The translations under genes and the position numbers were made by a program. Shown here one piece after another: positions 1,484 through 37,554 of a stretch of DNA of 64,000 bases (position 1 is its first letter; each line of letters opens with the position of its first letter). This DNA comes from Caenorhabditis elegans (taxonomy: Eukaryota; Nematoda; Chromadorea; Rhabditida; Rhabditidae): assembly GCF_000002985.6 (NCBI RefSeq), contig NC_003281.10, forward strand, positions 11,656,001 through 11,720,000, read 5' to 3'. The notes beneath the pieces are model-generated. The model was not told the origin of the DNA. It searched no databases and saw nothing but the letters and a program-made list of their open reading frames with translations.

Positions 1484-1491
1484 TGACGTCA
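1484..1491. promoter_or_regulatory. Perfect CRE upstream of crh-1 exon 1
   Basis: The palindrome TGACGTCA, the full-length CREB binding site, sits 283 bp upstream of the crh-1 start codon at 1767 within a less AT-rich block. It is not in a family A repeat. Established knowledge: CREB-family bZIP dimers bind this sequence. Inference: CRH-1 may regulate its own distal promoter. Confidence 0.65.
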
Positions 1492-19500: not shown

Positions 19501-20904
19501 TATTTTATATCCGTTTTTTTGTTTCTCATAAACTTCAAAAAAAAATTTATATAAATTATAGTTGGTCCTCTCTCTCTTCCTCTGCTGTGTAATAAAACCA
19601 ACTCGCACCACAAAAAAGGAGTCATCCTTAAACAAAAATAAGTGGCGGACATCTCACGGCTATGGCCACAATGGCGAGCACCTCAAATTGTTCGCCGGTA
19701 GCCACTTCGCCGTTGATGATGCTCTTGTTTAAGGTACCCAACAGCAACACGGTAATCACACATACATGTTGTATCTTTGTTGTAGTAGTGGTAGTTGTAG
19801 TAGAGTTTTAGTGGAAAAATTTCGAGAAAATTAAAATTTTGAAAAGAAAAACGCCATTCTTGTGTCATTTTTGAAGGAGTATATATCTTATCTAATATAC
19901 ACAGTTATATATAAGTTATATAATAGTTAAGTAAAAAAATCTCCAAAAAGGGTAGCTTGTTAAATTTTAATTTCTTATTTAAAAAAATTCAAAATTTTGA
20001 TTTAAATATTTAAATATTTAATTAGACATTAATTTTAGTATTTTTCGGTAAAACTCACCTAGTTTGTTTAAATTTTCGAAATTAAAAAAAAACAATTATG
20101 TAGTAAGGCATTATTTAAAAATTATCACACTTGTTTAAAATATCTTTAAAAAATGGAGAAATTTTTAATTTTCAACCCTAAAATATTGGGAAAAAAATGA
20201 ATTTGTACGAATTTTTTGGTGAAATTTGTACACAAAATTCAGATTAAAAATGCTTGTTTTTTTTCAGAAATTTTGAAACTTATGAAATAATTTTAAATGT
20301 CTTGATTTACTTTAAAAAATCATTATTTAACAAGCTACCTAATAATTAAATTAAATTTAAAAAAAATCACCCAATTTTACCCTCCAATACTCCTCCTCAT
20401 CCCAACATAAATTATTTCAGGCATTACAAGAAGGTGGGGATAGTGAGGATGAAGCACGGCGACGACGGGAACAACTTAATAGGAGGCCCTCATATCGGTT
20501 AGTTTTTTATTTTTGAAGATGTTAAAATATAAGAAACAAGTATTTGAAAAGCTGAAAAATGTGCAAAAATCTGGAATTTTTCGAATTTTTGAAAAAAAAA
20601 AGAATGTTAATAGGAGTACTGCTAAACCAAAAATGCTCGATTTTCCAAAAAAAAATTCAGCAAATTCCAAACAATCATTAATTTACTGGTTTAAAATGGT
20701 TTTATTACGATTTTAACGCAAAAGCTATGGAAAAAGATATATATATATATATACTGCTAAATTCGTTAGTATCAAAAAATTTTTTTTTTTAGAAATTTTA
20801 AATTTTTCTCTATTTTCCCTCATTTCGAAGGGGTTTATTGCGATTTCCGACACATTTTGAACGTTTTACAAAATTTCGCTGTGGAAAATTAATACAAATA
20901 CGTA

Positions 20905-24416: not shown

Positions 24417-27400
24417 GATCTGAAGCTTCAGCTCCTTGACCATGATATTTGAGCCATTTTTTGGGGGTGGCTAAGCCAGAGAGCCGCCACAAAAAAGATG
24501 TGACTTGTGGTTTAAGTGACTGGCTTCTCCCCATAGCCTTTTTGCCGCACATAAATGGAGATTTTAATACAATTATTATCAATTTATTAATCCCCCGGCC
24601 GGCAGATTCCAAGGAGCAGAAGTCGATGTGTGTGTGTTTCAGTTTTAGTTTCAGAGCAGCAGGATTAGGAGAGAAGACGAAGAGGCTAACAGGAAATTGG
24701 TGACAGGAAATCGTTTGATTTTTTTGTTGAATAGGATTTCTATGCAAACCGGAGTTTACTATTTTTTTTTGTTAAGCTCACAGGTGACACTGATGTCATT
24801 TTTTTGTATTTTTAAATGTTCTTTAGCGATTGGTTGGGTGCAATTCAGTTTGCCGATTTGCCGATTTGCCGATTTGCCGGAAAAAATCGCTTGCCGCCCA
24901 CCCCTGGTGCAATTTGAAAATTGCGAAGTTTTCTAAAATTCTGCAAATTCGGAAATAACCGATTTTAGGAATTATCGGCATTTTGTCATTAAAAGTTATT
25001 GGCAAACTTGGCATCTTCCGACATTGCCGAACTTTGTAAAGTGCCACAAGTTGACAATTGGCGCACTTTCAAGCCCAAAAACAATTTGGCGCTTGAAAAA
25101 AATGCCCATCTCGGATGTTTTCTACAATTCTGCAAAATCGGAAATAACCGATTTCAGGAATTGTTGGATATAAATTATTACTATTAATATACTATTGGCA
25201 AAATTGCCAATTTCGAATCTTTCGGAAAATCGGCAATTGTGGAACCTACAGACTGATTCGACGATCGTTTGAAAAAAGGCAACTTCTGATTTGTTCGACA
25301 AACTTGGCCACTCTTTTTAAGTTTTAAAATATTCGGTGAACTGCAAGTTGTTTAATAGCCGAATTCTAAAACAACACTGTTGCCAATCAATATATTTATT
25401 TCCCAGAACCCATATCCCCCAACAAAACACAAATTGCGGTCAACTCTATCCAAAGAGCAACATACTCTTTTTTTTTCTCTCTGAAAAGAGGTAGAGGACA
25501 ACAAGTTGTGGGTGGTGGTGAGATATCTCTTCGTCTTCCGCTCTCTTCAATATCTCACTGAATTACTCGAGTAGAGAGCTGGTGGTGGTGGGGGCGGAGT
25601 CAGCAGCCATTACCACCCCCACCTCAAAAGAGGGGGGGGGGGGGAGGAAAAGAAATCTGATATGGACCGTTTTCCCTCCATTTCTCTTCTTTTTTTCAAC
25701 ATCATCATCATCATCTTGAAGGTGGTTCTTGTGCCCCTCTCTCTGTGTATGTGTGTGTGTGTATGTGTGTGCTTGATTTAATTAGAAATGAGCACCCGAC
25801 CTCCACCCTCAGAACATTGGTTTTAGGTCGTCTCTTCTCTGAATACTAAGCAGATTAGCAGCAGAGAGTCTTTCTGTGCTATTGGATGTTTTGTAATCAG
25901 CACAACTTCATAGACTTCATAGATCTTTTTCTATAGTTTCCAAAGTTTGGTTTAAAGAGAATCTCACACCTCTCTTGGAATTTGAGTTTTTTATACAACT
26001 TTAAAGGTGGTTTAGTCGAATTTTTTTCATTGCCTTATTAGACTCAAAATTGTCTGAAAACACCGAATTTCATAATGAAGCATCTTGAAAACTTTTCATA
26101 AAAAAGTTATGACGGCTCAAAAAATGGCCTAAAATTAGTTAAAATTTGGAATTTGACCAACTTATCAATGTCGCAGCGGCAACATTTTTTTTTGAAATCA
26201 CCGTTAAATTTTAAGTATACAAGTTGATTATCTTGCGTTTTAAACTTGATTAAGGTTTTTAAAAATCGATGGACGGCGAAACTTTTAATTTTTTAAATCC
26301 AAAACTCGCCGTCCATCGACTTTTAAATACCTTAATTAAGTTTAAAACGCAAGATAATCAACTTGTATACTCAAAATTTAACGGTAATTTCAAAAAAAAT
26401 TGTTTCCAGCCGCTACGACATTGAGAAGTTGGTCAAATTTCCGATTTTAACTAATTTAGGCCATTTTTTGAGCCGTCATAACTTTTTTCTGAAAAGTTTT
26501 CAAGAAGTTTCATTATGAAATTCGGTGTTTTCAGACAATTTTGAATCTAATAAGGCAATAAAAAAATTCGACTACACCACCTTTAACCCCGCCCACTTCC
26601 TGGTTATTTCGCAGACTTTCTTCCATATTGAGCTATTCTGAATATAAATTTTGGAATTTTTTCTGAACTAGTTTGGATTTTGCGGTGTCAATTAAAGTTT
26701 TTTTGTAAAATCACTTTACTGATACTACCGACATTAAGACTATGACCTTGGGATCCTACTAAAGATATCATAATCACTAATTAGACGTTAATCCTTTATA
26801 GCAAACATCTAAATGATCAAACTATGATCTTTCAACATTCCCACGATGCCTTGCATTTTTCTCATGTAAGGAGTATGAAGCTTCTCACGTGGCAACTGCA
26901 GATCAACAAGCTTTGTTTTGCCAAATATTCACAAATTTGTAGGTACCCGCGGTGATTCATGATGGGACAATTTATATTAGAAATTTATAAGATCAGAATA
27001 GTCAGTCAGACACATTTATTCTCGAAATTAATATTCCATTCTTTTTTATCGTTCCTCTTCAATGATTTTTCACATCTCTCCGCTTCATTACCTCCTCTTA
27101 TTGATCTTTCAACAAAAAAAAAACTTCTCGCACGAGCTTCAGAGGGCGCCACGTCTTCGTCTTCACCACTTCCACCGGCGTCGACGGCGACGCTCTCCGC
27201 GTTCCGACCGCCGGCAAGAATGATTCCGCCGCCGGTGGTTCTTCCACAGCAATATGCGCCACTGCCGGGCTTCACACCACTTTTGCCAGCTCAAGCAATG
27301 ATGGCGAATTTCCCGCCAAATGCGCTCTACCAGTTAGGCACCCCACCGTTCGAGAATGGAAATAATCGGATTCGGTTCAAAGATGCTGCCATGGTCGTTC

Positions 27401-30400
27401 TGAGCAGACTATCATTTAATCAGAGAAGGTTAGATAATGCACATCAATGAGTCATGGTATTCTCATTAGCGTGAAATTTGAACACATGGGAATTAAAATA
27501 TTCAAACCCCAAACCATAAGTACTAATCCTCTCGAAAGTTACCTACAAAAATCGTGCTTTTGTATTCAAACAAATAAGTATATATACATATATATATATA
27601 TCTGCGTTGCGTTATTGACCATATTTATATAAAATGTTATTCAACCTCTGAATTTACATATTACTACGTTTTTAACACAATTATCAACTTAAACGTTCTC
27701 AAACTGTGAAAAAGGTTCGGAAGTAGTTTGAGGCCTATTAAAAAGTGTTACTACTTAGTTGATCACTGATATAATTAAAATATTATCCCAAACTTGAGGT
27801 TTTTTTGAAAAGGACACATAAATCACTAGTATTTTATCAATTACTCAATAAGAATCTCTGCTGAGCCTAGACCTAGCTAGCAGCCGAGCCTAGCTGCTAA
27901 GCCTAGGCATATCGATCAGTTTAGAAAACCAATTGCGACCCGGTTGCTCGTGTCAAACGAGCTCCCATTTCCGTTCCCCCGAAGATAATCGGTTGACCCA
28001 CCACATTCGAGTTGCTCCGGAGTCCGGATATCCTTCCGGAACACCTTCAACATCTATTGTTAGTGCTCTCCGGGCTCTGCGGAAAAACACGTCGTCGTCG
28101 TCAATCAAACGTCATTGACCTCGAAAAGACATTTGGGTTCTCGCCGCTTGGTGCATAAATAAAAAATTTCACACACACTATGATGTGAGCATTTTCGAGT
28201 TTTTGTATCAAAATGACGCACTTTTGAGTCAGTTAAAGCCGATTTGAAGCCGCTGTGATGAACTGAACGAAATTAAAACATATAGAATACAAAATGATTA
28301 CAACAATCAGTCAGAAGTGTGAATAATAATGCTATATAGTAAAGGATAATATAATTTTATATAGATTTTTATTAAAAAATGCAATAAAACATATTAGACA
28401 TGCCGTACTAATAGAGGAGTACAAGTAATTTAGAAAACTATTGAATTTTCATCGAAATGGTTCTCTCTGGTTTTTAAACTGAAATGATTTTTATCGAAAA
28501 ATAAAGAATTTGAAATTTCAGCGTTTTTTAAAGGCGCATAGGCGAAAAACGCAAAATTTAGCAGCTGAGTATTATTCAACCCATTATATTCAACCCAGGG
28601 ATGGGCTACAAAGGATTTTTTTTCCGGAAAATCGGCAACTTGCCGGAATTGAAATTTCTGGCAAAACGGCACATTGTCGGAATTTAAATTTGTGGAAAAT
28701 CGGCACATTGCCGGAATTTAAATTTGTGGAAAATCGGCAAATTGCCGGCAATTAAGATTTCCCGCAATTTGCCGAATCGCCGAATTTGTCGACAAAAAAA
28801 TTTGTGAATTTCAAAATTGCCCATCTTGCTAATATTTATTCGTCACTCATAAAGTAATTAAAATTCTATTTTTAAAAATTTCTCTCTCATCGCGACGTAA
28901 GAAAACAAGACACAAGGTGTTGTACCTGATGACGTCACTGATCATTTTCGTTCATTTTTATCAGCGATTATCAGTTTCTCCACCGTCTTTTTTTGCCACC
29001 CCGCTGACGTCATAGTTTACTCCTTTTTCCTTCAGCGGCGCGGCACTGCAAGAGATGCGAATTTAAGTTTTTTTGTTTTGAGTATTATGCTTTTGATGGC
29101 TGAAAATGTCGACGAGCTTGTTGTCCAGGTAGGGTGATAGTGATTGAAATTTTTTAGGTTCTCATTTGAAATATTAAAGTGTTAAAAATAATAAAATCAA
29201 TAATTTCAGCATGATCCTCAAAGATCTAGAAACGGCGGATAAGGTGATGAAGAAGGAGCCGGAGGAGACGCCGCCGTCCAGTGTAGATGCTTCACCATTA
29301 CAGGTAATAAGGATAGTCTAGAGCAGGGGTGCGCTGGGATATTTCGGCATTTTCTGGGTTTTGAAATTTTTAAAAATTAGAAATTTCGGAATTTGATGGT
29401 GTTTTTAAAATGATATATATATATCATTTACTATATATAAAGCGCTTATTCCGTTTGTCCATAGTTTGTAGTCTATGTAGTTTTTGTAGTCTGTGAAGTT
29501 TTAGCTTCTGGAGGGATAGTGAGTTGGGCTTAGTGTAGGGATATAGTCGGGGTACTGTAGTGGTACAATAATGGTACAGTAGGAATACTGTAGGGTTACG
29601 GTAGTTTCAGAAAAAATATTTTTCAGCCCCAGAAGCCGGGGGGCTTCCATGGTAGGCAGGCTCGGTTTCAGGGCCTGCCTGAAACCTGCCCGCCAGCCTT
29701 TCGCCTATTTTCTGCACTTTGACGTGAATTTTCAAATTTGCAAATTTCTATTAATTTGTTAAAAATCAAATTAAGAAAGGAAAACAATGTGCATTGTTGT
29801 GAGGCGAGAGGCATGCCAAGGCCAGGCAGGCAGGCGTTCTAGCGCCTACCTAGTTAGTTGCCTTTGAGAGTTTTGAACTAGAAAAAAGTTGGTCAGAAAA
29901 AAAAATTCCTGACTTTTTTTTTGAATGAAACCTTAAATTGTAGAAATTGAAGGACTAAACAAGCACGTAAATATACAACACTAACTTAATTTTTTTGTTT
30001 TAAATTTAAATTCCATGCCTACGGGTTTCCGTGGAACGATTAAAACATAGGGAATTAATATGAAAAAAAAACACTGAATACACGAAAATTGAAAATAAAA
30101 AGGATGAGCAATCCTCATTGTATATTTACGATTAAAGGTGGTGTAGTCGAATTGTTTTTATTGCCTTATTAGACTCAAAATTGTCTGAAAACACCGAATT
30201 TTATAATGAAACTTCTTGAAAACTTCTCAAAAAAAAAGTTATGACGGCTCAAACAATGACCTAAAATTAGTTAAAATCGGAAATTTGACTTGCCAAGCGT
30301 CTGGAAACAATTTTTTTAAAATCACCGTCAAATTTCGAGTATACAAGTTGATTACCTTGCGTTTTAAACTTGATTAAGGTATTTAAAAGTCAATGGACGG

Positions 30401-33400
30401 CGAGATTTTTAATTTTTTAAAACCAAAACTCGCCGTCAATCGATTTTTAAATACCTTAATCAAGTTTAAAACGCAAGATGATCAACTTCTATACTCAAAA
30501 TTTGACGGTGATTTCAAAAAAAAAAATGTTTCCAGCCGCTTGGCAAGTCAAATTTCCGATTTTAACTAATTTTAGGTCATTTTTTGAGTCGTCATAACTT
30601 TTTTCTGGAAAGTTTTCAAGAAGTTTCACTATGAAATTCGATGTTTTCAGGCAATTTGGGCCTAATAAGGCAATTTTAAAAAAATTCGCCTACACCACCT
30701 TTAATAGTAAGGAAGGACTAATGCTAAATATTCCTATACTCTTTTTTTTCGAACTTCCAGAAAACCACACCTTTTCTAAAACATCTGCACGTCCAACTCC
30801 ACCCTCACCTCGAAAATGTCAGGGTCTCCTGAAATCGAATTTAAATAAAAATGAAGCATTCAAAAAAAAACACCTGCATCTAATTCAATACACACCTGGA
30901 AAAAGTTTCCTTTCTTTTTGACATTTAAGCTTTTCGATGTTTAACTGAGTATCCTAGGAGAAGTGACAATCGAGGAGGTGGGTATTTAAGTAGTTACGGG
31001 TTAGGAGATTATGGAAAAGTGTTTAGATATACTTATTCAGCTGAGCTAGAAAAATAAGAATAATGATATTATTTAATGGGGTGAGTTTTTTTTTTTTGGT
31101 GTTAAGAAACATTTTTTTTTTGAACGTTGGAGAACTGTTTTAACTTTAAAGGGCCGGTCGGCAAATCCCGCGAATCCCGCAAATTGCCGGTTTGCCGATT
31201 TGCCGGAAATTTTTAATTCCGACAATTTTCCGATTTGCCGGAAATTTTCAAATCCGGCAATTTTCCGATTTGCCAGAAATTTTCAATTCCGGCAATTTGC
31301 CGATTTGCCGGAAATTTTCAAATCCGGCAAATTGGCGATTTGCCGGAAATTTTCAATTCCGGCAATTTGCCGATTTGCCGGAAATTTTCGATTCCGGCAA
31401 TTTGCCGATTTGCCGGAAATTTTCAATTCCGGCAATTTGCCTTTGCCGAAAATTTTCGATTCCGGCAATTTGCCGATTTGCCGAAATCTTTCAATTCCGA
31501 AAAATTGCCGATTTGCCGGAAATTTTCAATTCCGGCAATTTGCCGATTTGCCAGAAATTTTCAATTCCATCAATTTGCCGATTTGCCGAAATCTTTCAAT
31601 TCCGAAAAATTGCCGATTTGCCAGAAATTTTCAATTCCGGCAATTTACCGATTTGCCTAAATCTTTATTCCGGCAATTTGCCGATTTGTCGAAATCTTTC
31701 AATTCCGAAAAATTGCCGATTTGCCGGAAATTTTCGATTCCGGCAATTTGCCGATTTGTGTCTTTTTGAAATGTTTTCCTGTTTTCTTTAGATATAATCA
31801 TATAATTTTAAAAATAGATGTAGGAAAATCCATAGGATACGTACAATTTTGCCGATCGATTAAATTGAAATTTTGAAATTTCCAAAAATCTCGATTCCGG
31901 CAATTTACCACGAGTTCTGATATTTTTCGCGATACAAAACTTTCTGGTAGCAAAAAAAAACATATAATAAGGTTTTCTAATAAGATTTATACTTTTTTTG
32001 AAATCAAATTTTGATTTTCTTGCTAATGCAATTTGCTGACAAATTGGAATATAATATTTTATTCATATAATTTAATAATGAAATACGTTGGATGTTTTTG
32101 AAAAGCCTAACTAGTTCGTTCTCAGTTTCAGTCAGTAATGCGGCCTCCGCCAACAGCGCCACCTACCTCTGCAGCAACACCCAATCGGATTCTGCCATCC
32201 AGCAATGCGGCGTCACCATACGGATCTCCACTCGGTTCATCAATTCTGTCCAATCAGCCACTCGTCTTGCCATTCGCGCCGATCAACGGGGATTTTGATT
32301 TTAGCGCGGCGATCGCTGCCGCTTCACAGCCCAAAGGTCAGTTGGGATGGGGATTTTCGGGGGGTTGTTTTTTTTCGAAAAAATTTGGTTCTAAAAAATT
32401 TATATTTACCTACTTTCTACAAACTCGTGTGAAGCTTTTGATTAGTGCGAAAATTATCGAAAAAAATTTTTATTAAAAATTTTAAAATGTAACCGAATAT
32501 AATTTCTAAAAAAAAGGATTATAGAACATATCCAACATTTAAAATTATTATTTTTTCGACTTGCCTAAAAAAATAAAATTATTGGATTTTCTTAATCTAC
32601 TCTCTGTAATCTGGCTCGAAACACTCTTCCGCATTGAAAATTTCCGGCGAACGGCAAACCGGCAAATCGGCAAGTTGCCGGGAATGAAATTTCTGGCAAA
32701 TTACCGGAATTGAAGTTTCTGGCAAATCGGCAAATTGTCGGAGTTGAAAATTTCCAGACATCCGCCAAATTTCCGGAATTAACAATTTCCGGCAAATCGG
32801 CAAATTGCCGGAATTAACAATTTCCGGCAAATCGTCAAATTGGCGGAATTGAAAATTTCCGGCAAAATAGCGGAATTGAAATTTCTGGCAAATCGGCAAA
32901 TTGCCGGAATTGAAATTTCCGGCAAATCGGCAATTTGCCGGCAAACCGGTAAATTGGCGGAATTAAAAATTCTGGCACATTGCCGATTTGGCGATTTTTT
33001 GGTAATTGACGTTTTGCCGACAATTTCTTGTTTTGCTCATGTTTTTTAAAAATCAAATTTCAAAAAGGCACAGTTTTTAACCGTATTCAAAAAACCCTCT
33101 TTAAAAACGTTCGGCAAATTTATATCCGGCAAACTGCAATTTGGCAATTTGCCGGAATAAAATTTGCCAAACTGCAATTGTCGCCCTGTGCACTTCTAAA
33201 AGAGTACTACAAGGTGAATGATCAAGTGTTCATTCCAACGTAGTTGTGATAAGTATTTCATCCCTATCACCTTCCTTATCTGCGTGCCTTCGCATCACTT
33301 TTCTAATGTTTTCCGCCTAGAAATTGGAAACTTTTGATGCCCCTAGTTTTTTTTTTTTGAAACTTTCGTCATTTCGTTCTTTCATTTTTTCACCGGGGAG

Positions 33401-36400
33401 TTGAAAAGAAGAGTCGAACGAGAGGACGCAGAGAAGCGGAGAGTTATTTAGATCTTTTCTGTGCCCCGGGAGATAGAGAGAGAGATAGTTGTGTGTTATC
33501 AATGATGATTGTTGTCTCTGCGTATCCTATCGCACAGTTTCTTCGTCTTCTTCCCGCTTGTTTCTCTGGTAACTCTATTCGACAGGAATTGACGTCACTT
33601 TTTTTCTCAAGCGTTTCTCTCTACTAGGAGTCTCTAATCACACACACACACAGTGAGACCCCCGATAGTTTTTCCAATCTTCAACGTCTCCGATCTTCAT
33701 CATCAGTTGACCGTATTATTATTATTATCGATAGGATCACATATTATTTTAATTTTTTTTTTTGGTCTACAGTTTCAATGGAGTCACTGGTTTTCAATGG
33801 ACATTCTCATATGAATGGTATGAACTGGTAGGATGGATTTGAGCAGCAATACAATTAAGTTACTCGGAAAATTGAAGACTTTAGGGTTTTTCGCCTAGAA
33901 AAAATTATGAAGTAGCTCTGGAAATGTTAAATAAAATATTTAGAGAAGTAATGAAGTTACATCTAAAATGCGAACCCCTTTTCTTACAATTAGAAGTGGC
34001 ACTAACTAAATAGCGAATAGTTTATTGAACAGATTATTTTAATACAAACTTGCATCGTAATTTAGTATAGATTTGACGGAGTGGGTCTCGCCACGATATC
34101 TTGACGACATTCGGCATTGTGTTTTATTTTAGATATTACACAACTGTTGATTTTTTTATTAAAAAAAACTATTTTATGAAATTTGATATTATTAAAGGTG
34201 GAGTAGCGCCAGTAGGGAAATTGTTAAAAACCACTCCTTTGGTCGCAAAATGACCAAATATCATGATAAAACTTTTCAAAAAATTTTTGAATATTTTTTA
34301 TTCACTATCAAAAAATTCCCTCCAATTTCCTCAAAAGCTCTTTTTTTTTTCAAAATTTTGGCATGTTGCCAAAACTTTAACCAAAAATTGTGAAAAATCT
34401 AAAATTTTTTGGAGTGTTTTATTATGATATTTGGTTGTTTTGGATCATTTTGAGTACATTCAGACAAAATCCCCACTGGCGCTACTCCACCTTTAACTGT
34501 GCTGAGTAGGATAGGATTTAAGTGCCTAGTTTCAAGATTCTTCGAAAAATTAACAAAAAAAAACCGATTTTTTTCTGCAAAATGTAACACATTGACAGAA
34601 AAAATGACAATATCTCGATTGCAAATCTCTAAACCATCGTAGTTTGTGTTATGTTGCGTGTTTTAATGAATCGCTAGTCATCACTCTAAGCGAATCACAT
34701 CACAATAATTATGGCGTTTTTCGAGGTGTGGGCAAAACTTTTTGCAGGTTTTCATTTTTTTTTTCTTCCAGCAATTTTTAAAAATATAGTTGAGCTACTC
34801 ATTTTAAAGACACACACTTTTTTGAATTCTGAAAAGTCGAACTCATCATTAGCCTTCATTTTATATACATACGTTAATTAATATAAGCTAAACAATTATA
34901 AGACTTTCTAGGTTTGAAACTACATTTTTATTGTCCGAAAATTTAAAAAGTCTGAAAAAGTGAACCAAAACAAACGAAATCAGAATGTTTTGTTAAATCC
35001 CCCCCTATTTTTCTTCCGTATTAGATAAGCTAGATATAATTTTTATCAGAGAAAAATCAGAAAAAAATCTATTCAATTTCCTGTAGGATTTAGGTAGCAA
35101 ACTACATTTTTATAGGCCAAAAAACCAAAAATTCAATTTCCAGAATGTAAAAATTATTTTAAATATAATCCAGACATTTAGATATACGTCCTTAAACAAA
35201 ATTACACCTAGTTTTATTAAATATTTTGAACAACTCGAAAATTGTCTAATTTTCAACGAAATATTGTAGCAAAAAACCTAACTTTTCTTTAGTATTTCCA
35301 GGAGGACCACAACAAAACGGACTCGGCGGCGGCGGCGGAGGTGGAGGAGTACCGGGACCTTCTAGTGGAATTGCCGGAATGTCTGTACAACCACCAACTA
35401 GCAGTACACCATCCCAACAACAATCCGTACAATCACTTGAAGGCACATCTGGGCTCATTGGAAGTGCAATGAAGCCAATGTTGGGAATTGATGCTGTCAG
35501 CTTTCCAGGTTTGTGGGATTTTTGTACGAAAAATTCTGAAAAATCGATCAATTTGCGTCATATAATGTGGAATTTCGAAAAAAAAAATTCAAAATTGAAT
35601 TTTTTCAAAATCGAGTAATGCCTAATATAGGCTTAAATAATTAATTCATGATTAATAGAACAGAATTTTTTTTAAATTTTTTAAACTGTGTTTCACAGAG
35701 TAATCACGCTAATGAATAATTAAACGAAAAATTAAAGAAATTTTAAAGTTCTGTTTTTAATTGAATAATTAAGCATAAGCTTATATGTTTTTAGGCATAT
35801 AAATTTTTTTTTTAATTTTCAAAAAAATTTAACGAAAATCCATAATCCAATCAGTATATAAAAAATTTTGTAATAAAAAATTGCATTTTAAAAGTTGTTC
35901 TGTATAAAGTATAATGTACAAGCAAACAAAAACTTTTTCAATCAAAAAAAAATTGAATAGTTGAGCATAAGCTTATACGAGTAAGACATCAAAAAATATC
36001 ATATTTTAAGAAAAAAATATTTGAAAATGTTGTATCGATAGTTATTTTAATTAATCCATTTATTTAAATAGTCATATTTTTCTTCCATTTTTTGGCAATA
36101 TAGTGACAATATGAAAATATTTTTGTGGTAAAAAATTTATTTTAAAAATTGTTCTTTATAGAGTATAATATACAAGCTAATGAATGATTAAAGAATACAA
36201 AAATGAAGACTAAAAAATTTTCAGTTAGAAAAAAATTTAACTTAAAAAATATATATGATCATTCAAATAAAGCTATTACATTTTATTATATTAAAAATTT
36301 ATTTTCCAAAAAAATAATTTTTTTGGCAATATTGTGAAAACATTCCAGTTATCGAACAGTTCGAAACCATTGTTTTTCCAAATCAGCGGAATTCTAAAAA

Positions 36401-37554
36401 AATATATTTTTTGACCGCATTTTTTTTGGCAAAAAAATTCCAAATATTCCCATTTTTCATCCTATTCGATTATTCTACAGAATTCGGCACAACGGACTGG
36501 CAGTCACCGATGCTCTCCGGCGGCTACAGCTCGAGCCCATCGCCAACAATGACGGGCGGCTCAATGCGAATGGGCGGTGGACCGCTGCACGGTGAAGATG
36601 AATCGAATCGAAAGCGACAAGTACGATTGCTAAAGAATCGAGAGGCAGCGAAAGAGTGCCGCAGAAAAAAGAAGGTAATTTTTTGGAGCGGAAATTTGGA
36701 GGGAAAAAAATTATTTTTTGGCTGAAAAATTGAGAAAAATTAGACTTTTTTAAGATCGAAAATCAGATTTTTTTTTGGTTAAAATTTTCAGAAAATCACG
36801 ATTTTTGGACTGAAAATTTGGAAGAAAAAGGAATTTTTGGCTGAAAAAATGAAAAAAATTAGACTTTTTTTAGACTTAAAAATCATTATTTTTTTACTGA
36901 AAATGTGCAAAAAAAGTATATTTTTCGGCTAAAAATTTGGGGAAAAAATGAGATATTCTGACTGACATTACAAGAAAAAGTGCATTTTTTAGCTGAAAAT
37001 TTCAGGAAAAAAAATGCGATTTTTTTAAAATTGAAAATCAGGTTTTTTGGTTAAATTTTCAGAAAATCAAGATTTTTGAACTGAAAATTTGAAAAAAAAA
37101 ATTCTAGTTGAAAACTTCAGAAAAAGTTGTTTTTCGGCTCAAAAATCGAGGAAAAAAATAAAATTTTTTTGGCTTGAAAATCGGAAAAAAATCAATTTTT
37201 TTTTTGCCTAAAAATCGGAAAAAAAAACCAGTTTTAATTTAAATTGGAATTTTATTCAAATTTTCTGAAAAAATTAATTTTTTACCGTTTTTTACAAAAA
37301 AAAAATCCACCGATTTTCTAATTTTTTTTCTTAAATTTCGAGAAAAAAAATTCGTGAAATACTCCTAATTTTCACAAAATTTTAGTTTAAAATTTAGAGA
37401 AAATTTGAAAATCAAAAAAAAAAAATTATTTCAGGAATACGTAAAATGTCTGGAAAATCGCGTTTCGGTGCTGGAAAATCAGAACAAAGCACTCATCGAA
37501 GAGCTCAAAACGCTGAAAGAGCTGTACTGCCGAAAGGAAAAGGACGGAATGTGA
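1767..37554 (+). CDS. crh-1: CREB-family bZIP transcription factor CRH-1 (whole gene, long form)
   Basis: Seven exons join in frame: 1767-1805, 20421-20497, 29210-29303, 32132-32336, 35302-35508, 36481-36674 and 37435-37554, giving 311 aa. The order is a short N-terminus; a kinase-inducible domain with LNRRPSYRMILKDLE (Ser37, equivalent to CREB Ser133); a Pro/Ser/Gln/Gly-rich middle; and a C-terminal bZIP with basic region RLLKNREAAKECRRKKK and a leucine zipper ending ELYCRKEKDGM. Family knowledge: the protein binds CRE sites in the nucleus as a dimer, is activated by kinases at the KID serine, and acts in memory, stress and lifespan pathways in C. elegans. A TTTCAG acceptor at 1732-1737, 29 bases before the ATG, suggests SL1 trans-splicing. 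Intron 1 is about 18.6 kb. Candidate alternative first exons lie at 19662, 27220 and 29106. Confidence 0.96.
1806..3584. other. crh-1 intron 1, proximal AT-rich part
   Basis: No gene is seen. Long A and T runs dominate up to about 2600. At 3010-3380 a roughly 190-bp sequence containing GAAATTCCATGAAATCCGA is present twice as a direct repeat. A perfect TGACGTCA lies at 2787-2794. Confidence 0.5.
2787..2794. promoter_or_regulatory. Perfect CRE in crh-1 intron 1
   Basis: TGACGTCA lies in non-repeat-looking sequence within intron 1. It is a potential binding site for CREB/ATF factors; its function is inferred from sequence only. Confidence 0.4.
3585..3720. repeat. Family A palindromic element, copy 2 (degenerate)
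   Basis: It starts with CACGTGGTGCCAGGCTGTC and has the inverted GATCTACAAAAAATGCGGG and CCCGCATTTTT blocks. The centre has diverged and the CRE is lost. Confidence 0.7.
3721..4450. other. crh-1 intron 1 stretch with a CT microsatellite
   Basis: A (TC)n run lies at 3931-3955, surrounded by relatively GC-rich, non-repetitive DNA at 3880-4260. No convincing exon is seen. The unusual composition for this intron makes it a candidate enhancer, but nothing in the sequence proves it. Confidence 0.4.
4451..4628. repeat. Family A palindromic element, copy 3 (CRE-bearing)
   Basis: A near-complete copy with CACGTG at both ends and a perfect TGACGTCA at 4549-4556. The arms share the GATCTACAAAAAATGCGG block in opposite orientations. 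Confidence 0.85.
4629..5324. other. crh-1 intron 1 stretch between repeat copies
   Basis: Non-repetitive DNA at 4640-4970 is followed by short imperfect repeats of GAATTATCGAATTTGTTGAA that continue beyond copy 4 to about 5690. No gene is seen. Confidence 0.45.
5325..5505. repeat. Family A palindromic element, copy 4 (CRE-bearing)
   Basis: It runs from CACGTGGCGCCAAAGTG to GGGACAGGCTGACGTG, with a perfect TGACGTCA at 5433-5440. It lies inside an array of GAATTATCGAATT-type repeats, which it seems to have interrupted. Confidence 0.85.
5506..6661. other. crh-1 intron 1 stretch with CT and TG microsatellites
   Basis: A (CT)n run lies at 5926-5955 and a short TG run near 6018. The 5800-6200 block is less AT-rich than its surroundings. 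Frames on both strands here are short and look like shadows of simple sequence. No gene is called. Confidence 0.4.
6662..6849. repeat. Family A palindromic element, copy 5 (CRE-bearing, inverted)
   Basis: This complete copy has CACGTG at 6662-6667 and 6844-6849. It is inverted relative to copies 3 and 4, and its TGACGTCA is at 6733-6740. Confidence 0.85.
6857..7370. repeat. Large palindrome, family C (about 255-bp arms)
   Basis: The left arm begins TCCCTGATTTTATATTTCAG and the right arm ends with its reverse complement at about 7370. Shared internal blocks include CGATTTACGGGA against TCCCGTAAATCG. The centre is near 7110 around GGTCAGGCTAATC. This is a foldback MITE-like insertion that abuts copy 5 of family A. 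Confidence 0.8.
7371..10461. other. crh-1 intron 1, 3-kb stretch without a gene
   Basis: The stretch holds a (CT)n run at 7617-7637, an (AT)n run at 8426-8466, CA-rich DNA near 8590, and a less AT-rich block at 8560-9350 with a CACGTGG at 8981. A perfect TGACGTCA lies at 9571-9578. Sequences around 9480-9720 contain repeated TACATTACTTGAATAA-like words. No coding exon was recognised. Confidence 0.45.
9571..9578. promoter_or_regulatory. Perfect CRE in crh-1 intron 1
   Basis: TGACGTCA lies within a small imperfect palindrome: a GTTGTGGCGTAA block near 9503 faces GACGTCACAAC. Its role is inferred from sequence only. Confidence 0.35.
10462..10760. repeat. 35-bp tandem repeat array (GCCGGAAATT family), + orientation
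   Basis: Degenerate copies of a unit containing TTTGCCGGAATTTTCCATTT and TCCGGCAATTCGCCG. The same family recurs at 18145, 24840, 28620, 31155, 32640 and 56495. Open frames across it are repeat artefacts. Confidence 0.8.
10761..11229. other. crh-1 intron 1 stretch, no gene seen
   Basis: AT-rich sequence with a mixed-composition block at 10890-11070 rich in TTC. No exon or clear repeat was recognised. Confidence 0.4.
11230..11813. repeat. Palindromic element related to the TTAA family
   Basis: Two long arms meet near 11520. The central blocks are GTCGATGAGGGCACAAA against TTTGTGCCCTCATCGACCG. The right end reads GTACTCCACCTTTAA, matching other TTAA-ended palindromes in the window; the left end has diverged. 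A related fragment is seen at about 41210-41450. Confidence 0.75.
11814..13557. other. crh-1 intron 1 stretch with a GCCTGCC-type repeat
   Basis: Very A/T-homopolymeric DNA at 11860-12170 leads into non-repetitive DNA at 12180-12660. A small element with GGCAGGTTTCAGGCCCTGAA and GCCTGCCTACC words lies at 12835-12945; similar ones occur at 22870, 29635 and 41640. (TA)n runs lie at 13460-13500. No gene is called. Confidence 0.45.
13558..13703 (-). mobile_element. Putative short solo/3' LTR of a retrotransposon relic
   Basis: Read on the minus strand, a purine tract AAAGAGGGGAGA (plus 13704-13715) directly precedes TGTTTGGTATC. The segment ends ATACATAACA, so it has TG...CA ends with matching TGTT/AACA tips and a TGTAATAAAC polyadenylation-like signal inside. 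That combination is what a polypurine tract plus 3' LTR looks like. At 146 bp it is short for an LTR, and no second copy is visible in the window. Confidence 0.4.
13704..14210 (-). mobile_element. Possible internal remnant next to the LTR
   Basis: Relatively GC-rich sequence. The word GGTACCTCAGTTGTT with its downstream CTTGATGTTCCTCCAACC is duplicated at about 13880 and 13995. Short frames exist on both strands, but none encodes a recognisable gag or pol motif. It is bounded on the right by a (TA)n run at 14211-14234. I read it as debris of the element whose LTR lies at 13558-13703. Confidence 0.3.
14211..15581. other. crh-1 intron 1 stretch, no gene seen
   Basis: (TA)n runs lie at 14211-14234 and 15001-15020, with an (AG)n run near 14393-14406. 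The rest is AT-rich intron. Confidence 0.4.
15582..16617. repeat. Long foldback element with about 325-bp arms
   Basis: The left arm (about 15582-15913) and right arm (about 16286-16617) are reverse complements over blocks such as AGTAATACTCTCTACCTG against CAGGTAGAGAGTATTACT and AAAGTCTTGATTTCAC against GTGAAATCAAGACTTT. The loop of about 370 bp includes the word GGGTCTCGTTAGG. The arms are close enough in sequence to form a long RNA duplex in the crh-1 pre-mRNA. Confidence 0.8.
16618..18144. other. crh-1 intron 1 stretch, no gene seen
   Basis: The segment around 16680-16860 holds a smaller inverted repeat with GATTAAACATA against TATGTTTAATC. A less AT-rich block at 17100-17350, containing ACACACGTGGCACACATAC, may be regulatory. 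A homopolymer-rich region runs from 17440 to 17860. Confidence 0.4.
18145..18475. repeat. Sparse 35-bp-family repeat copies
   Basis: Words such as GGCAAATTGGCAACTTGCCG and CGGTTTGCCGATTTGACGG mark degraded copies. A unique-looking spacer at about 18235-18330 (TTTTTGAAATG, then TAGATGTAGGAACATCCATA) recurs next to the array at 31760-31850, so this is a larger compound repeat. Confidence 0.6.
18582..18596. repeat. Mono-C tract (15 C)
   Basis: Fifteen consecutive C form a G-tract on the minus strand. Such tracts are potential G-quadruplex sites. Confidence 0.9.
18597..19661. other. crh-1 intron 1, flank of the second candidate promoter
   Basis: Mostly AT-rich. The last 100 bp (19560-19661) contain a CTCTCTCTCTTCC stretch and less AT-rich sequence, consistent with a core promoter or 5' UTR for the exon at 19662. 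Confidence 0.4.
19662..19733 (+). CDS. crh-1: crh-1 candidate alternative first exon
   Basis: An ATG opens 24 codons beginning MATMASTSNCSPVATSPL. It ends at AAG|GTACCC in phase 0, which fits the KID exon at 20421. An earlier donor after codon 12 (CCG|GTAGCC, exon end 19697) is also in phase. Codon use is non-random and GC-rich against an AT-rich background, and the sequence is close to a CRH-1 isoform N-terminus as I remember it. The product would keep the KID serine. Neither donor is a strong match to the nematode consensus, so the exact end is uncertain. Confidence 0.6.
19734..20420. other. crh-1 intron before the KID exon
   Basis: AT-rich; no further exon is seen. It ends in the strong acceptor ATTATTTCAG. 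Confidence 0.5.
20421..20497 (+). CDS. crh-1: crh-1 KID exon with the phosphoacceptor serine
   Basis: The exon runs from TTATTTCAG to a GTTAGT donor and ends in phase 2. It encodes ALQEGGDSEDEARRRREQL followed by NRRPSYR. RRPSY matches the PKA/CaMK/AKT site of CREB; phosphorylation there recruits CBP/p300 (family knowledge). The helix partner residues (MILKDLE) lie in the next exon, so skipping this exon removes the switch but leaves the reading frame usable from exons that also end in phase 2. Confidence 0.95.
20498..21738. other. crh-1 intron 2, first part
   Basis: It contains a (TA)n microsatellite at about 20910-20966 and shorter TA runs at 20741 and 21611. Open frames across these are simple-sequence artefacts. 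No gene is seen. Confidence 0.45.
21739..22345. repeat. Tandem repeat, AATTTGAATTCCCGCCA units
   Basis: At least 14 imperfect copies of a unit of roughly 35-45 bp containing GAAAATTTGAATTCCCGCCA, with variants CCGGAACAA and CCCGCAAAA. The minus-strand frames of 93-143 residues here (repeated NSNFxxK motifs) are translations of the repeat. Confidence 0.85.
22346..24346. other. crh-1 intron 2 stretch, no confident gene
   Basis: The stretch includes an 18-C tract at 22652-22669, a GCCTGCC-type repeat at about 22870-22915 and a relatively GC-rich region at 23540-24120. That region contains a 125-codon + strand frame (23741-24118) with GGCCGAGTTTTCTAAATCTC, an inverted word seen in dispersed nematode repeats. 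The frame lacks splice logic and any recognisable domain, so I do not call it a gene. Confidence 0.35.
22652..22669. repeat. Mono-C tract (18 C)
   Basis: Eighteen consecutive C form a long G-tract on the minus strand. Confidence 0.9.
24347..24413. repeat. (CA)n microsatellite
   Basis: About 33 uninterrupted CA units. It yields a spurious Cys/Val frame on the minus strand. Confidence 0.95.
24414..26000. other. crh-1 intron 2 stretch, no gene seen
   Basis: A short 35-bp-family cluster lies at 24840-24905 in + orientation (TTTGCCGATTTGCCGGA words). More mixed-composition DNA lies at 25430-25900, with a 13-G tract at 25632-25644, TG microsatellite words near 25750 and CT-rich stretches. This mixed block is a candidate regulatory region. 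Confidence 0.4.
26001..26586. repeat. TTAA-ended palindromic element, copy 1
   Basis: It starts TTAAAGGTGGTTTAGTCGAA and ends with the complement CGACTACACCACCTTTAA. The arms of about 280 bp meet near 26290, where GATTAAGG...GGACGGCGA faces CGCCGTCC...CCTTAATTAA. Palindromes of this type flanked by TTAA are a known nematode non-autonomous class (from memory). A second copy is at 30132-30704. Confidence 0.85.
26587..27142. other. Upstream region of the 27220 exon
   Basis: Unique sequence with moderate composition. It includes CTCACGTGGCAACTGCAG near 26884 and a pyrimidine-rich run up to the GCTTCAG acceptor at 27142. It is the plausible promoter and 5' region for the exon that follows. Confidence 0.4.
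27220..27428 (+). CDS. crh-1: crh-1 candidate alternative first exon, Pro-rich, no KID serine
   Basis: The ATG at 27220 opens 69 codons plus AG, starting MIPPPVVLPQQYAPLPGF and ending LSRLSFNQR. It ends at AGAAG|GTTAGA in phase 2. That is exactly the phase needed to join exon 29210, giving ...FNQRS-MILKDLE. A GCTTCAG at 27136-27142 could be an SL1 site. GC content and codon bias are strongly coding-like compared with the surrounding intron. The resulting isoform would replace RRPSY with a Pro/Leu-rich segment while keeping the bZIP. It cannot be an internal exon after the KID exon, because that joining frame meets a stop. Confidence 0.6.
27429..27952. other. crh-1 intron stretch, no gene seen
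   Basis: AT-rich, with a TA run near 27585. A small block with CTAGCTAGCAGCCGAGCCTAG words lies near 27875. Confidence 0.4.
27953..28111 (-). other. Unassigned coding-like segment, minus strand
   Basis: Minus-strand bases 28111-27953 are open for 52 codons ending at a TGA. The frame includes VEGVPEGYPDSGATRMWW followed by VNRLSSGERKWELV. It has no ATG but contains a possible acceptor (CCGCAG, exon from 28076). Composition is GC-rich against AT-rich intron. It could be a terminal exon or relic of a gene nested in the crh-1 intron; I recognise no family. Confidence 0.25.
28112..28619. other. crh-1 intron stretch, no gene seen
   Basis: AT-rich, without repeats or exons that I recognise. Confidence 0.4.
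28620..28800. repeat. 35-bp-family array, inverted (-) orientation
   Basis: About four to five copies read GGAAAATCGGCAAATTGCCGG on the + strand, the reverse complement of the array at 31155. It lies upstream of the crh-1 exon at 29210. Confidence 0.8.
28930..28937. promoter_or_regulatory. Perfect CRE, distal member of an internal pair
   Basis: TGACGTCA lies 176 bp upstream of the ATG at 29106, in unique DNA and outside any family A repeat. It is paired with the site at 29005-29012. Confidence 0.6.
29005..29012. promoter_or_regulatory. Perfect CRE, proximal member of an internal pair
   Basis: TGACGTCA lies 101 bp upstream of the ATG at 29106, followed by a CCTTCAG (29030-29036) that could be a trans-splice acceptor. 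Two full CREs 75 bp apart directly before a candidate first exon suggest a CREB-responsive internal promoter. Confidence 0.6.
29106..29128 (+). CDS. crh-1: crh-1 candidate internal first exon producing a KID-less form
   Basis: The ATG at 29106 gives MSTSLLS plus AG before the donor CCAG|GTAGGG, ending in phase 2. Joining to 29210 gives MSTSLLSS-MILKDLETADK and then the normal bZIP. An out-of-frame upstream ATG (29087) precedes it, so leaky scanning or initiation at ATG 29211 (MILKDLE...) is also possible. Either way the phosphoserine exon is excluded. The intron would be 81 nt, a normal nematode size. It was identified by phase and by the CRE pair upstream, not by transcript data. Confidence 0.5.
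29210..29303 (+). CDS. crh-1: crh-1 exon with the second half of the KID
   Basis: The acceptor TAATTTCAG and donor CAG|GTAATA border 94 nt. Entered in phase 2 and left in phase 0, it encodes R/S-MILKDLETADKVMKKEP followed by EETPPSSVDASPLQ. ILKDL corresponds to the amphipathic helix of the CREB KID that contacts CBP KIX (family knowledge). Inverted 35-bp arrays lie on both sides (28620 and 31155). Confidence 0.93.
29304..30131. other. crh-1 intron 3, first part, with a GCCTGCC repeat
   Basis: GTACTGTAG-type words lie near 29555. A palindromic GCCTGCCTGAAACCTGCCCG-type element lies at about 29635-29860, related to those at 12835, 22870 and 41640. No exon is seen. Confidence 0.45.
30132..30704. 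repeat. TTAA-ended palindromic element, copy 2
   Basis: It starts TTAAAGGTGGTGTAGTCGAA and ends CCTACACCACCTTTAA. It is closely similar along its length to the copy at 26001-26586, including the central GGACGGCGA blocks. Confidence 0.85.
30705..31154. other. crh-1 intron 3 stretch, no gene seen
   Basis: Mixed AT-rich sequence; no exon or named repeat was recognised. Confidence 0.4.
31155..31770. repeat. 35-bp tandem array, + orientation, upstream of crh-1 exon 4
   Basis: About 17 copies of the unit CCGGCAATTTGCCGATTTGC + CGGAAATTTTCAATT. Because 35 is not a multiple of 3 and the unit lacks stops, all three + frames stay open, with a 35-residue period (frames of 141-199 residues). These are not genes. 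The array is the reverse complement of the one at 32640-33185, and the two bracket the exon at 32132-32336. Confidence 0.92.
31771..32131. other. Intron end before crh-1 exon 4
   Basis: It contains the same spacer word as at 18240-18330 (TAGATGTAGGAAAATCCATA). It ends at the acceptor TCAGTTTCAG. Confidence 0.45.
32132..32336 (+). CDS. crh-1: crh-1 exon 4 (Pro/Ala/Ser-rich), likely back-splicing exon
   Basis: A 205-nt exon, entered in phase 0 and left in phase 1 (CCCAAAG|GTCAGT). It encodes SVMRPPPTAPPTSAATPNR and continues to PINGDFDFSAAIAAASQPK. It corresponds to the low-complexity activation region between KID and bZIP. Oppositely oriented 35-bp arrays start about 360 bp upstream and 300 bp downstream; such pairing is known to favour exon circularisation. 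From memory, circular RNAs of C. elegans crh-1 come from its fourth exon. Confidence 0.92.
32337..32639. other. crh-1 intron 4, first part
   Basis: AT-rich; no exon is seen. Confidence 0.4.
32640..33185. repeat. 35-bp tandem array, inverted orientation, downstream of crh-1 exon 4
   Basis: About 12 copies of GGCAAATCGGCAAATTGCCG + GAATTGAAATTTCC, the reverse complement of the unit at 31155-31770. Minus-strand frames of 67-115 residues here are translations of the repeat. Confidence 0.92.
33186..34191. other. crh-1 intron 4 stretch with a possible promoter and exon-like segment
   Basis: Unlike most of the intron, 33230-33840 is non-repetitive and less AT-rich, with AGAGAG and CA simple words and a perfect CRE at 33590. 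At 33778 an ATG after TCTACAG opens MESLVFNGHSHMNGMN up to a GTAGGA donor at 33828. Its phase does not fit the next exon, so it could only be 5' UTR of a short form. Confidence 0.35.
33590..33597. promoter_or_regulatory. Perfect CRE in crh-1 intron 4
   Basis: TGACGTCA is preceded by AGGAAT in non-repetitive DNA, about 190 bp upstream of the exon-like segment at 33778. Confidence 0.4.
34192..34496. repeat. TTAA-ended palindromic element, short variant
   Basis: It starts TTAAAGGTGGAGTAGCGCCA and ends TGGCGCTACTCCACCTTTAA. The arms are about 150 bp. It has the same ends as the 26001 and 30132 elements but a different interior. Confidence 0.85.
34497..35301. other. crh-1 intron 4, last part
   Basis: AT-rich; no exon is seen. 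It ends in TATTTCCAG. Confidence 0.45.
35302..35508 (+). CDS. crh-1: crh-1 exon 5 (Gly/Gln/Ser-rich)
   Basis: A 207-nt exon with phase 1 on both sides. It encodes GGPQQNGLGGGGGGGGVPG, a Pro/Ser/Gln segment and GLIGSAMKPMLGIDAVSF. The run of eight glycines (GGC/GGA/GGT codons) may vary in length. The Gln-rich stretch resembles CREB activation domains in composition. Confidence 0.92.
35509..36480. other. crh-1 intron 5
   Basis: AT-rich; no exon is seen. Repeated words such as GAATAATTAAGCATAAGCTT appear twice (about 35763 and 35956). It ends in ATTCTACAG. Confidence 0.45.
36481..36674 (+). CDS. crh-1: crh-1 exon 6 with the bZIP basic region
   Basis: It encodes EFGTTDWQSPMLSGGYSSSP, a Met/Gly-rich linker, and then RKRQVRLLKNREAAKECR + RKKK. 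The invariant bZIP Asn, Ala-Ala, Cys and Arg contacts are all present. The exon stops after KKK, before EYVKC, where I believe mammalian CREB genes also have an intron. Confidence 0.96.
36675..37434. other. crh-1 intron 6
   Basis: Low-complexity DNA made of loose repeats of GGCTGAAAATTTGGAAAAAA-like words. No exon is seen. Confidence 0.5.
37435..37554 (+). CDS. crh-1: crh-1 last exon, leucine zipper
   Basis: It encodes EYVKCLENRVSVLENQNKAL + IEELKTLKELYCRKEKDGM and the TGA stop. The heptad leucines and the YVKCLENRV start match the CREB/CREM/ATF1 zipper almost residue for residue. Confidence 0.97.
   Translation, partial: EYVKCLENRVSVLENQNKALIEELKTLKELYCRKEKDGM

What the first reader, a model, noticed from the sequence alone, without database searches (positions are those of the whole stretch)
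28930..29303. Possible CREB-responsive internal promoter giving a KID-less CRH-1, like ICER of CREM
Two perfect TGACGTCA sites 75 bp apart lie 101-176 bp before an ATG at 29106. Its short exon ends in phase 2, exactly as the KID exon does, so it joins exon 29210 in frame. The product (MSTSLLSS-MILKDLE... or initiation at 29211) keeps the bZIP but lacks RRPSY. Such a protein would bind CREs without being switchable. Mammalian CREM produces the repressor ICER from an internal CRE-bearing promoter; an independently evolved counterpart in a nematode CREB gene would be notable.
Basis: partly seen in the sequence, partly recalled or inferred. Interest (0 to 1): 0.85.

Follow-up and report, generated by a model that had tools for sequence, protein, structure and literature searches.

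The report
Internal start of worm CREB gene
Inside the memory gene crh-1 (CREB) of the worm C. elegans there is a tiny, probably real, alternative first exon preceded by two perfect CREB-binding sites, so the gene may make a cut-down, non-phosphorylatable version of its own protein under its own control; a similar cut-down form starting elsewhere in the gene is already known.

Summary
The window holds C. elegans crh-1 (chromosome III). In detail: perfect TGACGTCA sites at 28930 and 29005 in apparently single-copy DNA, then a mini-exon (29106-29128, phase 2) joining exon 29210 in frame, keeping the bZIP without RRPSY. New support: a C. briggsae record begins MSSTLVCS-MILKDLE, like the predicted MSTSLLSS-MILKDLE in length and phase; of 61 short phase-2 mini-exons in the window this one matches best (19 versus 2). 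The 77-nt KID exon cannot be skipped in frame from the upstream first exons tested, so a KID-less product needs an internal start.

The ICER reading is only partly supported. A KID-less internal-start isoform, CRH-1f (ATG 33778), is already published as a repressor when overexpressed. It resembles ICER more (186 aa) and has its own perfect CRE 188 bp upstream. The 29106 product keeps the second KID helix, and CRTC input through the bZIP stays possible. Out-of-frame ATGs at 29055, 29087 and 29096 would hamper translation. Transcript start, CRH-1 binding, inducibility and CRE conservation could not be tested here.

The parts
28930..28937 (+). perfect palindromic CRE, distal of the pair
   Evidence: exact match TGACGTCA; surrounding 330 bp found once in the genome
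29005..29012 (+). perfect palindromic CRE, proximal of the pair
   Evidence: exact match TGACGTCA
29021..29035 (+). possible trans-splice acceptor TCCTTTTTCCTTCAG|CGGCGC (inferred)
   Evidence: sequence; the acceptor consensus is recalled, no test made
29087..29128 (+). out-of-frame upstream ATGs (29087, 29096) overlapping the candidate start; reading ends in exon 3 at 29242
   Evidence: translation across the junction gives MLLMAENVDELVVQHDPQRSRNGG then stop
29106..29128 (+). candidate alternative first coding exon, MSTSLLS + AG, phase 2
   Evidence: in-frame joining; matches C. briggsae N-terminus MSSTLVCS, best of 61 mini-exons of 5-12 residues on the + strand of the window
29210..29303 (+). 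crh-1 exon 3: MILKDLE... (second KID helix and following stretch)
   Evidence: part of the model that reproduces P0001; pKID positions 24-41
20421..20497 (+). KID exon (first helix and RRPSYR), 77 nt, ends phase 2
   Evidence: aligns to CREB KID chain 2lxt, also hit 1kdx
33590..33597 (+). perfect CRE 188 bp before the CRH-1f ATG
   Evidence: surrounding 338 bp found once in the genome
33778..33817 (+). first exon of the published KID-less isoform CRH-1f (MESLVFNGHSHMN), joins exon 35302
   Evidence: published primers qYD26 and YD169 map here; C. tropicalis P0012 begins MESLVFNGHSNMN; exon end modelled
1484..1491 (+). perfect CRE 283 bp before the crh-1c ATG (1767)
36481..37554 (+). exons 6-7 (36481-36674, 37435-37554) coding the bZIP
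   Evidence: model; aligns to CREB bZIP chains 5zko, 5zk1, 1dh3
27136..27428 (+). further exon-like ORF joining exon 3 in phase 2, also without the KID exon
   Evidence: similar to N-termini of P0064, P0011, P0004

Best explanation
28.9-29.13 kb is an internal, CRE-bearing promoter of crh-1 with a tiny conserved first exon. It makes a 280-aa CRH-1 that lacks the first KID helix and the RRPS phosphosite but keeps the second KID helix, the middle region and the bZIP. CRH-1 (or a bZIP partner) on the two CREs would raise this transcript, and the product would occupy CREs as homo- or heterodimers and damp kinase-driven activation, alongside the already known CRH-1f, whose own start also has a CRE. 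Shown by sequence: CREs, exon, phase, open product, bZIP, similar N-terminus in another species. Inferred: promoter activity, CRH-1 binding, inducibility, repressor action.
For: CREs exact, in DNA found once in the genome. C. brenneri MLCT-MILKDLE fits the same exon end, nearer to the C. briggsae letters (13) than to the C. elegans ones (6). KID skipping is out of frame from 4 of 4 upstream first-exon forms tested, which have three ATGs. Three of six starts have a CRE within 300 bp: P 1e-4 at the genome rate, 0.010 if promoters carry 5 times more, 0.007 against random positions in the gene. CRH-1f, a KID-less form, inhibits memory when expressed pan-neuronally (PMC6774408 section 20) and restores FLP-18 levels in crh-1 mutants (PMC5965667 passages).
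Against: No transcript, TSS or binding data for C. elegans were available. Out-of-frame ATGs 29055, 29087 and 29096 precede 29106. Without the nominated start, the CRE-start link is 2 of 5 at 300 bp (P 0.003, or 0.06 with 5-fold promoter enrichment) and 1 of 5 at 200 bp (P 0.06 or 0.26); the limits were set after seeing the data. TGACGTCA is common in this genome (6024 copies), and the 7 copies in the window outside the repeat family are no clear excess (P 0.095). The isoform paper describes only a-f. In the search with residues 1-42, 18 of 20 matches give no support for this exon. The C. briggsae record may be a gene prediction, not a cloned cDNA.
Confidence: 0.45

Rival explanations
1. The ICER-like product of crh-1 is CRH-1f (start 33778, CRE at 33590); the 29106 exon is a minor or neuron-restricted extra start whose longer product may still activate.
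For: CRH-1f cDNA was obtained from worm RNA and acts as a repressor on overexpression; 186 aa, 19.7 kDa, against ICER under 20 kDa and mainly DNA-binding domain (PMC3941242 passages); CRE 188 bp upstream; similar start in C. tropicalis P0012; a pyrimidine-rich AG five bases before its ATG.
Against: Only one CRE, against two here and four in ICER P2; inducibility of CRH-1f not seen tested; does not explain the 29106 exon's match in C. briggsae.
Confidence: 0.3
2. The CRE pair is an intronic enhancer or a site for another bZIP (ATF-7 and others), acting on other crh-1 promoters, not an ICER-type autoregulatory promoter.
For: CRE is not CRH-1 specific: mammalian ATF7 binds TGACGTCA (PMC5478092 passage). 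The intron is 8.7 kb long. Upstream ATGs do not favour a coding start.
Against: The pair lies 101-176 bp before a first exon with support from other species.
Confidence: 0.17
3. Chance: common motif copies next to a spurious mini-exon.
For: 18 phase-2 mini-exons occur in this intron by the same loose rule; the motif is common.
Against: The C. briggsae and C. brenneri N-termini; pair density about 0.03 per 36 kb.
Confidence: 0.08

Closest known systems
CRH-1f (C. elegans crh-1 isoform f)
   Same: Same gene, internal start inside an intron, no RRPS, bZIP kept, a perfect CRE upstream; repressor when overexpressed.
   Different: Starts at 33778 and drops exons 3 and 4 as well; one CRE; a possible trans-splice acceptor five bases before its ATG.
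ICER (mammalian CREM P2 product)
   Same: Internal intronic start preceded by CREs; bZIP kept, phosphorylatable KID lost.
   Different: ICER has four CREs, is mainly the DNA-binding domain, is inducible and negatively autoregulated (PMC3941242 passages); here two CREs, 280 aa, inducibility and autoregulation untested, and the gene is a CREB homologue, not CREM.
CRE-containing creb1/creb2 promoters of Aplysia and of the mammalian CREB gene
   Same: CREs in a CREB gene's own promoter, implying feedback.
   Different: As far as the titles tell, not an internal KID-less start. Seen only as reference titles in PMC11333461.

Membership tests
ICER-type internal repressor promoter | transcription start inside an intron, downstream of the KID exon | tested here: inconclusive
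   Exon position and phase fit, and C. briggsae record P0007 supports a separate first exon; no TSS data available.
ICER-type internal repressor promoter | cluster of CREs in that promoter | tested here: met
   Two perfect CREs, 176 and 101 bp before the ATG; ICER has four.
ICER-type internal repressor promoter | product is mainly the bZIP, activator and regulatory regions absent | tested here: not met
   280 aa with second KID helix and exons 3-5 retained; CRH-1f (186 aa) comes closer.
ICER-type internal repressor promoter | lacks the PKA site RRPS | tested here: met
   RRPSY occurs once in the window's three forward frames, in the KID exon at 20481.
ICER-type internal repressor promoter | induced as an early gene by cAMP/CREB and represses its own promoter | not testable with these tools
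   needs expression and binding data
CREB family bZIP protein | CREB-type bZIP | tested here: met
   PF00170 E 2.4e-17; CREB bZIP chain 5zko E 3.3e-24, residues 220-276.

The most novel reading that the evidence does not exclude
Caenorhabditis crh-1 carries a set of internal KID-less starts (29106, CRH-1f at 33778, perhaps 27136), two of them with their own CREs, so that CREB induces its own non-phosphorylatable competitors: an ICER-like negative feedback circuit evolved in a CREB gene, independently of vertebrate CREM, and usable as a timer on long-term memory.
Probability: 0.25. Interest if true: 0.75.

Novelty: new variant of a known kind. Interest (0 to 1): 0.5.

Why it matters
How a CREB response is shut off after training is, to my knowledge, an open question in the worm, where crh-1 is the main CREB gene studied (recalled). 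If the internal starts are CRE-driven, the gene contains its own delayed brake, with defined 8-bp sites to delete. It would be convergence on the ICER solution from a different gene, and would help explain why crh-1 has so many first exons.

Tried and rejected
Exon skipping as the source of a KID-less protein: rejected, since dropping the 77-nt KID exon shifts the frame from all four upstream first-exon forms tested (1a/b, 1d, 1c, 1e; three ATGs).

Direct joining of the upstream ATGs to exon 3: the 29087/29096 frame stops at 29242; no bZIP-coding isoform there.

Repeat origin of the pair: not supported, the 330-bp stretch found only itself; five other CREs in the window are repeat-borne.

Knupp et al. 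give chrIII:11685086-11691812 for a figure spanning exons 3-5 (PMC8844124 passage). By subtraction its left edge is one base before ATG 29087; I could not tell whether this marks an annotated exon or an arbitrary frame, and drew nothing from it.

Whether WormBase already lists this start (a seventh isoform, g, is mentioned but not described) could not be settled: the protein collection is clustered, and even CRH-1f does not appear as a separate row named C. elegans among the best 120 of 4106. A literature search for crh-1f, crh-1g or Y41C4A.4 gave 3 papers, none with crh-1g.

Literature on the idea: ICER + CREB + elegans + internal promoter gave 0 papers; crh-1 + repressor isoform + elegans gave 1; of 127 papers with at least two of crh-1/ICER/alternative promoter/internal promoter only 8 were listed, none with crh-1. 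This is one open-licence library, so absence is weak. PMC8312985 (section 9 and passages), PMC6105014 (passages) and PMC4963118 (one passage) showed nothing on internal starts.

CRE conservation in other nematodes: not tested. The genome tool says this genome has no relatives there; I scanned none of the viral or bacterial/archaeal collections.

Errors of mine on the way: one search translated exons 4 and 5 with wrong ends; one search used a KID exon one base short, a CRH-1f exon three bases short and a trial start at 29088 instead of 29087. Searches are the corrected ones; the candidate protein itself was right.

Full report
Where it is. The window is bases 11,656,001-11,720,000 of contig 3 of an unnamed 100,286,401-base genome. 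Published crh-1 primers of Dahiya et al. 2019 map along it (PMC6774408 Table 1; mapping), and the exons assembled here reproduce the C. elegans crh-1 protein record P0001 letter for letter. It is therefore C. elegans chromosome III, gene crh-1, the CREB homologue.

Gene layout in the window. First exons that lead into the KID exon: 1c (ATG 1767), 1e (ATG 18722), 1a/b/d (ATG 19662). KID exon 20421-20497, containing RRPSYR, 77 nt, ending in phase 2. Then exon 3 (29210-29303), exon 4 (32132-32336, or from 32126), exon 5 (35302-35508, or from 35293), exon 6 (36481-36674) and exon 7 (37435-37554). The published KID-less isoform CRH-1f starts at 33778 and joins exon 5.

Observation. Two exact TGACGTCA sites at 28930 and 29005, and ATG 29106 opening a 23-nt exon that ends in phase 2 and joins exon 3 in frame, are all there. 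The product is MSTSLLSS-MILKDLE..., 280 aa, with a bZIP matching CREB chains in the PDB (5zko, 5zk1, 1dh3) and without RRPSY. The KID exon aligns to the CREB KID chain 2lxt, with 1kdx also hit; the new product keeps only the second half of that domain (pKID profile positions 24-41 of 41, below the cut-off).

How surprising are the CREs. The composition shuffle expects 0.46 in the window and 12 are found, but that null is misleading: the whole genome holds 6024 copies against 1102 for the reversed pattern, so 3.8 are expected in 64 kb, and five of the twelve belong to one repeat family. The other seven are no clear excess (P 0.095). Pairs with a 60-90 bp gap number 76 in the genome against 1 for the control, which is 0.03 per 36 kb. 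The pair here lies in DNA that found only itself. Of six starts considered, three have a CRE within 300 bp upstream (1c at 283, 29106 at 176 and 101, CRH-1f at 188); the other three (1e, 1a/b/d, 27136) have none within 500 bp. At the genome rate 3 of 6 has P 1e-4; with a five-fold promoter enrichment 0.010; against random positions in the gene, which include these same CREs, 0.007. Within 200 bp it is 2 of 6, P 0.002 or 0.04. Leaving out 29106, which was nominated because of its CREs, it is 2 of 5 at 300 bp (P 0.003 or 0.06) and 1 of 5 at 200 bp (P 0.06 or 0.26). The distance limits were chosen after seeing the distances.

Is the exon real. By the loose rule ATG, open, phase-2 GTRR donor, 18 mini-exons exist in the 8.7-kb intron, so the sequence argument alone is weak. 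The protein search changed this. Among 4106 proteins found (120 listed), C. briggsae P0007 (8 member sequences, no KID) begins MSSTLVCS-MILKDLE, and C. brenneri P0002 begins MLCT-MILKDLE. Against MSSTLVCS, aligned without gaps from the exon end, the 29106 peptide scores 19; the next best of 61 mini-exons of 5-12 residues on the + strand of the window scores 2, and the best of 6 eight-residue ones on the reverse strand scores 7. Leaving out the first and last residue, 654 of 94,962 six-frame 6-mers do as well (0.7%), to which equal length and phase add. The C. brenneri residues MLCT score 13 against LVCS of C. briggsae but 6 against LLSS of C. elegans. A search with residues 1-42 alone put P0007 first among 20 matches. 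The other 18 rows besides P0007 and P0002 gave no support for this exon: 13 carry a pKID call, and the 5 that do not (P0004, P0009, P0014, P0017, P0064) start differently. The recent C. briggsae annotations were built with long- and short-read RNA (PMC9011032 abstract and passages), and the authors warn of remaining errors; that P0007 comes from that set is my recollection of the locus prefix, which does not occur in that paper's text.

Why an internal start is needed. The four upstream first-exon forms tested (three ATGs) end in phase 0 while exon 3 needs two carried bases, so dropping the 77-nt KID exon shifts the frame and stops. A KID-less CRH-1 with this exon structure must come from a separate first exon, as CRH-1f does.

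What speaks against the simple picture. Any mRNA starting upstream of 29087 carries out-of-frame ATGs at 29087 and 29096; the first reads MLLMAENVDELVVQHDPQRSRNGG and stops at 29242; a start upstream of 29055 adds a three-codon one. ATG 29106 has AAA before it, which by recalled worm preference is the best context of the four, and ATGs 29211 and 29247 are in frame, so leaky scanning or re-initiation could still give bZIP products, but output would probably be low. An acceptor-like TCCTTTTTCCTTCAG ends at 29035 and could serve trans-splicing; that is resemblance only.

Known biology. Dahiya et al. state that the gene has seven isoforms a-g, that a-e have KID and bZIP, that CRH-1f lacks the KID, and that pan-neuronal CRH-1f in wild type inhibited memory formation (PMC6774408, sections 6, 20 and 24 read whole, others as passages). 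CRH-1f expression also brought raised FLP-18 levels of crh-1 mutants back down (PMC5965667 passages). ICER is described as under 20 kDa, mainly DNA-binding domain, made from the internal P2 promoter with four CREs and repressing itself (PMC3941242 passages). CRH-1f as modelled is 186 aa and 19.7 kDa, the 29106 product 280 aa and 29.3 kDa. So if crh-1 has an ICER, CRH-1f is the better structural match, and it too has a perfect CRE, 188 bp before its ATG. CRTC coactivators bind bZIP factors (PMC10645585 passages), so a protein without RRPS is not necessarily beyond control.

Mechanism judged most likely (0.45). An internal CRE-bearing promoter with a conserved tiny first exon, giving a CRH-1 that binds CREs but cannot receive the activating phosphate, thereby damping CREB output. 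Shown: sites, exon, frame, domain content, similar N-terminus in another species. Inferred: promoter activity, CRH-1 occupancy, inducibility, repression. Whether the start is already in WormBase (isoform g is undescribed in what I read) is unresolved.

Noticed in passing
27136-27428: Exon-like ORF with a phase-2 donor joining exon 3 in frame; similar to N-termini of C. tropicalis P0064 (BLASTP 2e-12), C. briggsae P0011 (2e-9) and C. remanei P0004 (7e-4), without low-complexity filtering. A further N-terminus without the KID exon, Pro-rich; no CRE within 500 bp upstream.
   Followed up: partly
33590-33817: The published repressor isoform CRH-1f has a perfect CRE 188 bp before its ATG, in DNA that found only itself in the genome; I saw no mention of it in the parts of the two papers that I read.
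   Followed up: yes
1484-1491: Perfect CRE 283 bp before the start of crh-1c, one of the two isoforms (c, e) tied to long-term memory.
   Followed up: partly
486, 4549, 5433, 6733, 40800: TGACGTCA embedded in copies of a dispersed repeat (flank like gcagagttctcaactgatttcgcatggttaag); similar flanks recur in listed genome-wide pair matches, so a repeat family seems to spread perfect CREs.
   Followed up: no
G000:C2:2997811-2998271 (same genome, outside the window): Tandem array carrying a perfect CRE about every 30 bp.
   Followed up: no
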